From Nocardia huaxiensis (lineage in GTDB: Bacteria; Actinomycetota; Actinomycetes; Mycobacteriales; Mycobacteriaceae), in assembly GCF_013744875.1 (NCBI RefSeq), contig NZ_CP059399.1, positions 3,844,001-3,908,000 on the forward strand: a stretch of DNA of 64,000 bases. The letters run 5' to 3'. Of this stretch, positions 35,189 through 38,558 are shown one piece after another. The translations under genes were made by a program, and so were the position numbers. How positions within the stretch are numbered: the first letter of the stretch is position 1; each line of letters begins with the position of its first letter. The notes under the pieces were generated by a model. The model saw nothing but the letters and a program-made list of their open reading frames with translations. It made no database searches and was not told where the DNA came from.

Positions 35189-35521
35189 TCAGCGCGCGAA
35201 TTGCCCCACGAGGTCGGCGCTGAGGTCTGCGGCGGCGCGGCAGGCGTTGGCGCAGGCCACCTCTCCCAGGCGTTCGCAGGTATCGGCGGTGCGCGAGCAC
35301 ACTTCCGCGGCCAATTCGCACAGACTGGAAGTCCACGTCGAATGCCGGTCGAGCATGTCGCCGGCGAGTCGGCAGACGTCGGCGCAATCCATCAGGGCGG
35401 TGATATGGGTTCGGGCGGCGTGATTTCCGCCCTTGTCGATGGATTCGCCCACTTGCCGGATGCAGCTGCGGTGGCAGCCGAGCAATGCGTTGATGGTGCT
35501 CTGAAGCTTCGGATCGGTCAT
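35189..35521 (-). CDS. Four-helix-bundle copper-binding protein (DUF326/Csp-like)
   Basis: A 110-residue all-helical protein with nine cysteines, several in CxxxC pairs (CHRSC at 16-20, CADVC at 46-50, C68, C75, C82, CANAC at 90-94). This spacing places Cys inside a four-helix bundle, as in cytosolic copper-storage proteins (Csp/DUF326), which buffer Cu(I). No signal peptide, so cytosolic. ATG 35521 has GAGGAG upstream. It is divergent from the leader-peptide unit at 35704. No copper pump or sensor is nearby. Confidence 0.82.
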   Translation of the reverse strand: MTDPKLQSTINALLGCHRSCIRQVGESIDKGGNHAARTHITALMDCADVCRLAGDMLDRHSTWTSSLCELAAEVCSRTADTCERLGEVACANACRAAADLSADLVGQFAR

Positions 35522-35703
35522 CGCGATACTCCTCGGACAGTCCGGATGGTCCGGTATTCACTGAGAGTTGGCGCGAGCGTCTGGCAGCGGTGTTCATTGT
35601 GTCATCCCGGCGTGGCGTGGGCTCCGCCACACGGTAGGTGACCTGCGGCGAAGTTACTCGTGGGTCGATTGCGAATATGGTTGCCAATGCGTGGGTCTGC
35701 CCC

Positions 35704-35709
35704 TATGCT
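35704..35709 (+). promoter_or_regulatory. -10 element of the leader-peptide transcript
   Basis: TATGCT seven bases before GTG 35717. It places the start of transcription on the GTG of the leader reading frame, 224 bases before the LeuA-domain gene. Confidence 0.5.
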
Positions 35710-35716
35710 CGGTGCC

Positions 35717-35848
35717 GTGCCGAATCCCGCCCACAGCCGCAGCGCAGTGCTTCGTGTCGCCGACCGCGACCGCGCCGCGCTCATTCCGCTTACCGCGATG
35801 GTGGCTGCTGTGCGAGTACTCGTAGTTCTCCGCCGTAGCGGGGTCTGA
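35717..35848 (+). CDS. Putative leader peptide with Val/Leu-rich control region
   Basis: A 43-codon leaderless frame (GTG 35717, TGA at 35846-35848) whose end reads MVAAVRVLVVLRRSGV. Codons 34-38 (GTA CTC GTA GTT CTC, 35816-35830) form a branched-chain amino-acid run just before a hairpin arm. An internal ATG at 35798 in the same frame gives a 16-residue peptide of classical leader size. The form (…V-L-V-V-L-R-R…) resembles known actinobacterial ilv/leu leader peptides. Its role would be sensing charged tRNA-Val/Leu by ribosome stalling. Confidence 0.55.
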   Translation: MPNPAHSRSAVLRVADRDRAALIPLTAMVAAVRVLVVLRRSGV

Positions 35849-35887
35849 TTCGGACCGGCCCCTCGCTGCGGCCGTTTGAACTCTTTT
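35832..35887 (+). promoter_or_regulatory. Candidate branched-chain amino-acid attenuator
   Basis: GCCGTAGCGGGG (35832-35843), covering the last leader codons, pairs with CCCCTCGCTGCGGC (35859-35872) with one bulge and one wobble: an anti-terminator. Its 3' arm overlaps a mutually exclusive CGGCC/GGCCG stem (35856-35860 with 35870-35874) followed by a T-rich run to 35887. A ribosome stalled on the Val/Leu codons leaves the anti-terminator free; one at the stop codon blocks it. The terminator stem is short (5 bp), which is the weak point. Confidence 0.5.
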
Positions 35888-35940
35888 TGCGCTGGTCCCC
35901 TCTGCCAAATTCTGGGAAGAAGTCGGGAAGACCTAGTTCA

Positions 35941-36363
35941 ATGACCATCACACTCGATACACACACGTTCATCGCCGCTGCCCCCAAGAGCCTGAAGGCC
36001 GAAAGCACCGGCATGACCCCCGCCGAGTTCTACGACCGGTACTGCGGACACGCGGGCCCGATCAAACTCGGCGAATACACCCACCGCCGCGCCGCCGAAT
36101 TCACCGCGACCCTCGAATTCGCCGGCCACCTCCGCACGGTGACCGCCACCGGAAGCCCCGTCGCGGCCCTGACCTCGGCCCTCTACGACGAGGGCTATCC
36201 GGTCGAAATCCTCCAGTTCCACCAGCGCCGCACCGAATCCGGCATGGCCACCTTCGTCCAGTGCGAATTCAACGGCCGCCGCGGCTGGGGCGCCGCCATC
36301 GCCGACGACAGCGCGGAATCCACTGTCCGCGCCATGATCGCCGGTATCAACTCGCTCGGCTGA
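35941..36363 (+). CDS. Stand-alone 2-isopropylmalate synthase regulatory (LeuA dimerisation) domain protein
   Basis: A 140-residue protein that matches only the C-terminal allosteric domain of LeuA. Shared features: F-Y-x-x-Y entry (AEFYDRYCGHAGPIKLGEY), strand pair with TGSPVAALTSALYDEGYPVE (the Gly-Pro-Leu-Ala-Ala helix start), LQFHQRRTESGMATFVQCEF and WGAAIADDSAESTVRAMIAG at the end. The catalytic TIM barrel is absent, and there is no upstream remnant. It is preceded by the leader peptide and attenuator and followed by a terminator, so it is a dedicated unit. It may bind leucine or assemble with LeuA; this is inference. An isopropylmalate-dehydrogenase-like gene is 1.1 kb downstream. Confidence 0.75.
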   Translation: MTITLDTHTFIAAAPKSLKAESTGMTPAEFYDRYCGHAGPIKLGEYTHRRAAEFTATLEFAGHLRTVTATGSPVAALTSALYDEGYPVEILQFHQRRTESGMATFVQCEFNGRRGWGAAIADDSAESTVRAMIAGINSLG

Positions 36364-37472: not shown

Positions 37473-38558
37473 ATGAGCAACACCGAGACCCGGCTTCGGC
37501 TGGGCCTGATCGAAGGCGACGGCATCGGGCCGGAGATAGTGCGAGCCACCCGCGACGTGGTGGACGAGGCACTGAAGGTATTGGAGCTGCCGCCCGTCGA
37601 ATGGGTGCCGCTCCTCATCGGCCACGCCGCCATCGCCGAGTTCGGCGACCCCATGCCCGAGCAGACCCTGAAGGCCCTCGCCGGCCTCGACGCCTGGATC
37701 ATGGGCCCGCACGACAATGCCTCCTACGCCCCCGAGTATCGCGCCGGACTGCCGCCCGCCGGCGCGGTCCGCAAACGCTTCGGCCTCTACGCGAACATCC
37801 GCTGGGCGCGCACACATCCGGATGTGCGGTCGGTGGCCGACGAGATGGATCTGATCATCGTCCGGGAGAACAGCGAGGGCCTCTACGCCGACCGAAACAT
37901 GTTCGCCGGCTCCGGGGAGTTCCAGCCGACCGCCGACACCGCGCTCGCCGTAGGCGTTTTCACCCATGGGGCCATCGAACGCATTGCGCACCAGGCGTTC
38001 CGGATCGCGACCCGGCGCCGCAAGAAGGTCACCATCGTGCACAAGGCGAACGTGCTGCCCATGACCATGGGCATGTTCCGAGACGTGTGCTACGAAGTGG
38101 CCGAACAGTATCCGGACGTGGAAACCCGCGACGAGCACGTGGACGCCATGACCGCCCTGCTGGTCCGCAATCCGGCCGACTTCGACGTCATCGTGACCGA
38201 GAACCTGTTCGGCGACATCCTCTCCGATCTGGCCGGCGAACTGAGCGGTTCGCTCGGCATGGCCGCCTCCCTCAACAGCTCGGACACCCAGGCCATGGCC
38301 CAGGCCGTGCACGGTGCGGCCCCTACGCTCGCCGGCCACAATCGCGCCAATCCGGTGGCCATGCTGCTGTCGGCGGTGGGCATGCTGCGCTGGCTCGGCA
38401 CCCGTGACGTGCACAGTGCGCTCTACCGTCTGGCGGACCGAATTGAACACGCAGTAGCGGAGACGTTGCGGGCTGGTGTAGCTACGTCGGATTTGGGTGG
38501 GTTAGCATCTACGACCGAATTCACCGAGCAGGTGCGGGCACGGCTGCACCGCTGGTGA
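37473..38558 (+). CDS. Isocitrate/isopropylmalate dehydrogenase family protein
   Basis: A 361-residue beta-decarboxylating dehydrogenase. Sequence marks: GLIEGDGIGPEIV (N-terminal nucleotide side), NIRWARTHPDV, RENSEGLYADRN (catalytic Tyr), VHKANVLP (catalytic Lys), and the metal-binding VTENLFGDILSDLAGELSGS with two Asp. The substrate-recognition region is not diagnostic: it could be a 3-isopropylmalate, tartrate or homoisocitrate dehydrogenase relative rather than LeuB itself. ATG 37473 follows GAGGA. It stands close to the LeuA-domain protein, which may hint at leucine or related 2-oxoacid metabolism. Confidence 0.85.
   Translation: MSNTETRLRLGLIEGDGIGPEIVRATRDVVDEALKVLELPPVEWVPLLIGHAAIAEFGDPMPEQTLKALAGLDAWIMGPHDNASYAPEYRAGLPPAGAVRKRFGLYANIRWARTHPDVRSVADEMDLIIVRENSEGLYADRNMFAGSGEFQPTADTALAVGVFTHGAIERIAHQAFRIATRRRKKVTIVHKANVLPMTMGMFRDVCYEVAEQYPDVETRDEHVDAMTALLVRNPADFDVIVTENLFGDILSDLAGELSGSLGMAASLNSSDTQAMAQAVHGAAPTLAGHNRANPVAMLLSAVGMLRWLGTRDVHSALYRLADRIEHAVAETLRAGVATSDLGGLASTTEFTEQVRARLHRW

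What the first reader, a model, noticed from the sequence alone, without database searches (positions are those of the whole stretch)
35704..35940. Leader peptide plus attenuator in front of a LeuA regulatory-domain gene
A TATGCT -10 is seven bases before a 43-codon frame whose end reads V-L-V-V-L-R-R-S-G-V-stop. The 12 bases covering the last codons (35832-35843) can pair with 35859-35872, and that arm also belongs to a competing GC hairpin followed by a T-rich stretch. Stalling on the Val/Leu codons (35816-35830) would free the anti-terminator; a ribosome on the stop codon would mask it. This is the geometry of transcription attenuation by branched-chain amino acids, here controlling an unusual target. 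The short terminator stem is the weak point.
Basis: partly seen in the sequence, partly recalled or inferred. Interest (0 to 1): 0.85.

Follow-up and report, generated by a model that had tools for sequence, protein, structure and literature searches.

The report
Valine-codon switch before a LeuA-domain gene
In front of a small gene for a free-standing regulatory piece of the leucine-pathway enzyme LeuA lies an RNA switch related to the known leucine switch of leuA, but its leader peptide carries valine codons where the other carries leucine codons, which suggests that valine supply decides how much of this regulator is made.

Summary
The 43-codon leader ORF (35717-35848), its promoter and the pairing of its last codons with 35859-35872 are real and conserved in Nocardia. 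No transcription terminator was found. The element is a paralogue of the actinobacterial LEU element, a pseudoknot described upstream of leuA in 2005 (PMC1262725). Nocardia leuA has its own LEU element. Of 122 distinct elements before the stand-alone gene, 117 have Val-Val where 96 of 99 before leuA or a second leuA have Leu-Leu; of the other five, three have Val-Val one codon earlier and two have Leu-Val; three leuA leaders could not be parsed. The pseudoknot's 3' strand can instead pair with the Shine-Dalgarno region, so pseudoknot and sequestering hairpin exclude each other: a translational attenuator by its anatomy. The most likely role is valine-dependent production of a free LeuA regulatory domain. 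That it acts on LeuA is inference. Nothing was measured.

The parts
35681..35709 (+). Promoter: -35 TTGCCA (35681-35686), 17-base spacer, -10 TATGCT (35704-35709)
   Evidence: Scan; a TANNNT box 5-9 bases before the leader start in 67 of 67 Nocardia elements
35717..35848 (+). Leader ORF, GTG start, 43 codons plus TGA, probably on a leaderless mRNA
   Evidence: first nine bases GTGCCGAAT 63, GTGCCGAAC 3, GTGTCGAAT 1 of 67; pN/pS 0.65 in frame for codons 2-32 against 1.08 and 0.88 in the other frames
35816..35830 (+). Codons V-L-V-V-L; the conserved pair is Val-Val at 35822-35827 (GTA GTT)
   Evidence: Codon tally; coordinates
35833..35843 (+). P1 hairpin, 5' strand
   Evidence: Covariation; coordinates
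35860..35871 (+). P1 hairpin, 3' strand (U35863 bulged)
   Evidence: coordinates
35824..35828 (+). P1b 5' strand (AGUUC), overlaps the Val codons
   Evidence: MFE fold; stronger counterpart outside Nocardia
35878..35882 (+). P1b 3' strand (GAACU)
35852..35859 (+). P2 pseudoknot helix, 5' strand (GGACCGGC), in the P1 loop just after the leader stop codon
   Evidence: Covariation; coordinates
35891..35898 (+). P2 pseudoknot helix, 3' strand (GCUGGUCC)
   Evidence: Covariation; coordinates
35894..35900 (+). P3 5' strand (GGUCCCC), overlaps the P2 3' strand
35925..35933 (+). Shine-Dalgarno region and P3 3' strand (GGGAAGACC)
   Evidence: GGGAAGAC in 61 of 61 and GGGAAGACC in 60 of 61 rows of alignment A1; pairing
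35941..36363 (+). Stand-alone LeuA regulatory (dimerisation) domain protein, 140 aa
36371..36408 (.). Terminator-like hairpin behind the gene (called on the - strand)

Best explanation
This is a valine-codon paralogue of the actinobacterial LEU element, working as a ribosome-controlled translational attenuator of a stand-alone LeuA regulatory-domain gene. Shown by comparison: a leader peptide that mostly ends (L/V/R)-V-V-x-R-R-S-G-V-stop, a hairpin P1 with a pseudoknot helix P2, and a hairpin P3 whose 5' strand is part of the P2 3' strand and which covers the Shine-Dalgarno site. Inferred: with enough charged Val-tRNA the ribosome reaches the stop codon, covers P1 and the P2 5' strand, P3 forms, and the gene is off. 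When valine is short the ribosome stalls on the Val codons, P2 forms, P3 cannot, and the gene is translated. Inferred with less confidence: the free domain then acts on LeuA, which uses 2-ketoisovalerate, the shared precursor of valine and leucine.
For: P1 99.9% and P2 92.5% of cells paired; 7 of 16 pairs with two-sided changes, 97 cells; 30-46% paired and at most 12 such cells when slid; cells paired and covariation score reached by 0 of 500 shuffles. The alignment was fitted to P1, not to P2. The codon pair follows the target gene: of 122 distinct stand-alone elements 117 Val-Val, 3 Val-Val one codon earlier, 2 Leu-Val; of 99 leuA/leuA2 elements 96 Leu-Leu, 3 unparsed. Codon -8 is GTA in 114 of 114 V rows (33 distinct 30-mers) though GTA is 6% of Val codons in five window genes. 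GACC behind the Shine-Dalgarno in 101 of 105 V-class regions that have GGTC, 19.7 expected. The P2 3' strand pairs with the Shine-Dalgarno end in 40 of 40 non-Nocardia and 48 of 56 Nocardia MFE folds. Stand-alone gene at E 1e-47 or better in 145 of 146 Nocardia genomes. A TANNNT box ends 4-12 bases before the leader start in 73 of 83 elements of both classes, 9 of 83 in the neighbouring window of the same width.
Against: No expression data. One measure, further pair types, does not exceed shuffles (16 against a mean of 16.0), and related sequences weaken all shuffle counts. In Nocardia P3 is not more stable than shuffles (mean z 0.05), only in the other sequences (-1.56). The bases GTAGT also serve in P1b outside Nocardia, so part of the Val conservation may be RNA conservation; Nocardia keeps them with no CTACG partner (0 of 67), which argues against this being all. 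Two distinct stand-alone elements (L250, L293) have Leu-Val instead of Val-Val. The window's leader also has Leu codons at 35819 and 35828. PMC1262725 reports that codon mutations in the S. coelicolor ilvB leader had no effect and those in the leuA leader an effect not consistent with classical attenuation. Action on LeuA is untested.
Confidence: 0.67

Rival explanations
1. Classical transcription attenuation with a terminator downstream of the leader.
For: A T run (CTTTTT) follows P1 in the window and its nearest relatives; ilvB leaders of actinobacteria carry terminators (PMC1262725; passages of PMC13236596 for Mtb ilvB1).
Against: No + strand terminator found; T run of 5 or more in 14 of 67 Nocardia and 2 of 43 other elements; the conserved competing pairing covers the Shine-Dalgarno site.
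Confidence: 0.08
2. The element is read by a protein or ligand, not by a translating ribosome; the leader ORF is incidental. PMC1262725 favoured a protein for the leuA LEU element.
For: The RNA core is very conserved; leader-codon mutations in S. coelicolor did not fit classical attenuation (PMC1262725).
Against: The frame is kept over 42-68 codons from a conserved GTG in 67 of 68 Nocardia elements matched by a core pattern (the miss is cut by a contig start); pN/pS is lowest in frame; the codon pair follows the target gene.
Confidence: 0.15
3. It senses leucine or branched-chain amino acids in general; Val-Val is drift within one paralogue.
For: The window peptide is V-L-V-V-L; CTC stands at -9 in 102 of 114 V rows; L250 and L293 have Leu-Val.
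Against: Val-Val is kept where that Leu is gone (e.g. L212, L220, L288-L290), and the common Val codons GTC and GTG occur at -8 or -7 in 0 of 114 rows.
Confidence: 0.25
4. The downstream gene is a decaying leuA fragment that kept its leader.
For: Short relative of LeuA with a Pfam score just over the cut-off; sources name relatives 2-isopropylmalate synthase or homocitrate synthase.
Against: 77% mean column identity over 20 Nocardia proteins, 145 of 146 genomes, intact predicted fold, and relatives named Rhodococcus and Mycobacterium.
Confidence: 0.02

Closest known systems
LEU element upstream of leuA in Actinobacteria (Seliverstov et al. 2005, PMC1262725; text parts 1 and 2 of 3 read)
   Same: Leader peptide overlapping a hairpin, pseudoknot helix, Shine-Dalgarno occlusion as an idea; the Nocardia leuA leaders share the core sequence.
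   Different: Target is a stand-alone LeuA regulatory-domain gene; Val-Val instead of Leu-Leu; the Shine-Dalgarno site pairs with the P2 3' strand; in Nocardia the leader is 42-68 codons.
Leaderless cysteine leader ORFs of mycobacteria (Canestrari et al. 2020; paper not held, seen only as cited in passages of PMC13236596)
   Same: Leaderless short ORF with regulatory codons; translational attenuation as that passage states.
   Different: Other amino acid and other target.
ilvB leader attenuators of actinobacteria (PMC1262725; Mtb ilvB1 in passages of PMC13236596)
   Same: Branched-chain codons in a leader ORF.
   Different: Those are described with an intrinsic terminator; none was found here.
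LeuA regulatory domain (PF08502), M. tuberculosis LeuA 1sr9/3fig
   Different: No catalytic domain; positions that I recall as leucine contacts are partly changed (Y554 to F, A558 to R, a gap at G533 in Nocardia; alignment).
Stand-alone regulatory subunits such as IlvN/IlvH or HisZ (recalled)
   Same: Regulatory part encoded apart from the enzyme.
   Different: Here a full LeuA with its own regulatory domain is also present, and no complex is known.

Membership tests
LEU element (as defined in PMC1262725) | Pseudoknot of two helices | tested here: met
   Two-sided changes in P1 and P2
[quoted passage not shown]
   Leader present, but Val-Val at the key positions
LEU element (as defined in PMC1262725) | Located upstream of leuA | tested here: not met
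   Precedes a stand-alone regulatory-domain gene; leuA has its own copy
LEU element (as defined in PMC1262725) | Base stem of leader codons with the Shine-Dalgarno box | tested here: inconclusive
   CUCG with CGGG only, and not covarying; P3 serves that site instead
Transcription attenuator | Intrinsic terminator in the leader | tested here: not met
Translational attenuator | Hairpin covering the Shine-Dalgarno site, exclusive with another helix | tested here: met
   By sequence and predicted folds only; no excess stability in Nocardia
Translational attenuator | Ribosome stalling changes translation of the gene | not testable with these tools
   Needs reporters
LeuA_dimer, PF08502 | Score over the curated cut-off, and the fold | tested here: met
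   26.4 against 24.9 bits; 27 of 32 members match at E 0.01
LeuA_dimer, PF08502 | Leucine binding | tested here: inconclusive
   Contact residues are recalled, not from a call; partly kept in the alignments
Rfam families (release 15) | Match over a gathering score at the element | tested here: not met
   None in window 35500-36200 nor at the elements of five loci (its matches over the score are tRNAs)

The most novel reading that the evidence does not exclude
Two paralogous RNA switches set the flow at the valine/leucine branch point: a leucine-reading one on LeuA and a valine-reading one on a free LeuA regulatory domain. Valine shortage raises the free domain, which pairs with LeuA through the dimerisation domain and restrains it, so that 2-ketoisovalerate is spared for valine. 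It would be an inhibitor made by duplicating an enzyme's regulatory domain together with its RNA switch and swapping the amino acid that is read.
Probability: 0.33. Interest if true: 0.82.

Novelty: new variant of a known kind. Interest (0 to 1): 0.62.

Why it matters
It adds a second, conserved class of LEU elements with another predicted amino-acid specificity, and gives a predicted regulator and signal to a protein family found in 145 of 146 Nocardia genomes searched and named after enzymes that it is too short to be. The two classes side by side in one genome make the old question of how LEU elements work testable: swapping the codons between them should swap the amino acid they answer to.

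Tried and rejected
Rejected: a terminator reading; an Rfam family (the miRNA line is far below its gathering score); stability of the whole leader as evidence. The loose pattern search matched 148 of 148 genomes, but its reversed-pattern control also matched in most of them, at lower counts, so it was not used for counts. P3 stability in Nocardia: none beyond shuffles. P1b: strong outside Nocardia (mean z -2.7, 34 of 38 below -1, four elements skipped by the script), absent as a general feature in Nocardia (mean z -0.05, 15 of 67 below -1). Literature: searches listed no paper that I could recognise as describing a LEU element before a stand-alone regulatory domain; only open-licence papers are held. 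PMC1262725: parts 1 and 2 of 3 of the text read, no figures; PMC13236596 and PMC4974804: passages only; the other papers: listing only. PMC4974804 reports a ribosome-protected uORF before leuA of M. abscessus (passage).

Rows dropped or not used: L009 (no leader start, contig cut) before the leader tally; the Nocardia leader set (68) holds only elements that match a core pattern, so deviating ones are not in it; 6 of 67 Nocardia elements were left out of alignment A1; L170, L171 and L173 were not used in the target-gene table; L250 was set aside as odd; three leuA elements (L282, L283, L303) are counted as unparsed. Target genes were read only for a sample: 27 of the 30 automatic loci, 60 further places from it, the 26 automatic loci L260-L285 and 20 fetched places, and the Nocardia sets. 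Five of the 230 rows are second copies of the same place and four more are identical in sequence; 221 are distinct.

Full report

The leader is conserved. A scan of species genomes returned 64 loci, all titled Nocardia, coding for the same protein; 63 of 64 show the RNA core upstream, and the miss (L037) has only 13 bases there. The gene is found at E 1e-47 or better in 145 of 146 genomes of the genus; the last, of 4.8 Mb, has 1.5e-5 as its best. Of 68 Nocardia elements that match a core pattern, 67 keep the leader open to a GTG (first nine bases GTGCCGAAT 63, GTGCCGAAC 3, GTGTCGAAT 1), 48 of them with 43 codons and the rest with 42 to 68; the remaining one is cut by a contig start. In the 48, pN/pS for codons 2-32 is 0.65 in frame and 1.08 and 0.88 in the other frames, but 0.83 for codons 21-32 alone: a modest coding signal, as parts are also conserved as DNA or RNA. 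A TANNNT box lies 5-9 bases before the start in 67 of 67; over 83 elements of both classes in the wider set a box ends 4-12 bases before the chosen start in 73, against 9 in the neighbouring window. The mRNA is probably leaderless.

It is a relative of the LEU element. The core fits what PMC1262725 describes before leuA of actinobacteria: a leader peptide and a pseudoknot (parts 1 and 2 of the text read; figures not held). Full-length leuA of Nocardia has its own element: 32 of 32 leuA loci read carry one (30, two found by pattern), with leaders such as M-Q-R-A-L-L-L-G-R-R-D-G-V. A covariance model built from both Nocardia groups matches 145 of 151 genomes of the family, two or three times in 130 of them, and 75 of 121 genomes of the order. 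Of the order genomes not in the family sample (handles G290 and above), 23 loci were read and 23 precede leuA or a second leuA; the tool does not say which of these lie outside the family.

Two classes. I read the downstream gene of 230 rows, 221 distinct. Of 122 distinct elements before the stand-alone gene, 117 have Val-Val at codons -8 and -7, three (L288-L290) have Val-Val one codon earlier, and two (L250, L293) have Leu-Val. Of 99 before leuA or a second leuA, 96 have Leu-Leu there and three were not parsed. In the tally (114 V rows, 33 distinct 30-mers; 69 L rows, 39 distinct; one odd row set aside) codon -8 is GTA in 114 of 114 and -7 is GTA or GTT in 114 of 114, while in five genes of the window these two codons make 6% and 2.7% of valine codons. 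The Leu at -9 is lost in some (I-Q-V-V-V, V-R-V-V-V). Stand-alone proteins of this class are named Rhodococcus or Mycobacterium where a source gives a name; the fetched genomes themselves are unnamed.

Structure. On 92 elements aligned to a model with P1 only (87 distinct rows), P1 is paired in 99.9% and P2 in 92.5% of cells; 7 of 16 pairs change on both sides, in 97 cells, against 30-46% paired and at most 12 such cells when slid. Of the shuffle measures, cells paired and covariation score are reached by 0 of 500, pairs with two-sided change by 1 of 500, but further pair types are no higher than in shuffles. The outermost P2 pair is poor (36 of 84 rows unpaired). In the V class the P2 3' strand (GGUC) can also pair with GACC directly behind the Shine-Dalgarno site: 101 of 105 regions with GGTC also have GACC, 19.7 expected from base shuffles; 4 further regions lack GGTC. 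The rows are related, so this is not a probability; without Nocardia it is 36 of 42. In folds of this region (96 distinct) the P2 strand pairs with the Shine-Dalgarno end in 40 of 40 non-Nocardia and 48 of 56 Nocardia sequences, but only the former are more stable than shuffles (mean z -1.56 and 0.05). Outside Nocardia a further helix P1b joins the Val codons to a segment behind P1 (mean z -2.7); the third base of the second Val codon and its partner are T-A in 20, A-T in 8, A-A in 3 and T-T in 1 of the 32 elements, of 42 examined, where a simple motif finds both. Nocardia lacks the CTACG partner (0 of 67) yet keeps the codons. In the window a short AGUUC/GAACU version exists.

How it would work. 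At the stop codon (35846-35848) a ribosome covers the P1 5' strand and reaches the P2 5' strand (35852-35859); P3 then hides the Shine-Dalgarno site. Stalled on the Val codons (35822-35827) it leaves the P2 5' strand free; P2 takes the GGUCC and the site opens. The positions are shown, the footprint size is general knowledge, and the response is inference. That valine is the signal rests on the codon switch between the classes. That the protein acts on LeuA rests on its fold and on pathway logic: LeuA consumes 2-ketoisovalerate, the last common precursor of valine and leucine. Positions that I recall as leucine contacts in LeuA (G531, G533, A536, Y554, A558) read G, a gap, A, F, R in the window's family by the alignment, so its ligand, if any, may differ.

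The ORF, the -10, the pairing and the branched-chain idea hold. The terminator does not: none is found, and the T run is present in 14 of 67 Nocardia and 2 of 43 other elements.

Novelty. LEU elements before leuA are known. I found no report of the V class or of its target in searches of an open-licence library. I rate it a new variant of a known kind.

Noticed in passing
35756-35770: Inside the leader ORF, codons 14-18 (V-A-D-R-D) are nearly invariant also as DNA and can form a 5-bp hairpin GUCGC/GCGAC whose loop holds the variable base; purpose unknown.
   Followed up: partly
L020, L026, L027, L030, L031, L036, L039, L044, L054, L064, leaders before the stand-alone gene: These Nocardia leaders have 68 codons, about 25 more than the usual 43, in the same reading frame.
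   Followed up: no
L072, L204, L207, L213, L215, L294, L296: A second full-length LeuA paralogue has its own LEU element with a Leu-Leu leader.
   Followed up: partly
relatives of 35941-36363: Sources name the stand-alone protein 2-isopropylmalate synthase (Rhodococcus) or homocitrate synthase (Mycobacterium), though at 140-200 residues it has no catalytic domain.
   Followed up: yes
35189-35518 (-): A cysteine-rich protein of 110 residues upstream, without a match in Pfam or NCBIfam; its cysteine pattern recalls four-helix copper-binding proteins (recalled, not tested).
   Followed up: no
37473-38555 (+): An isocitrate/isopropylmalate dehydrogenase family protein lies 1.1 kb behind the gene, below the cut-off of each NCBIfam model listed, leuB included.
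   Followed up: no
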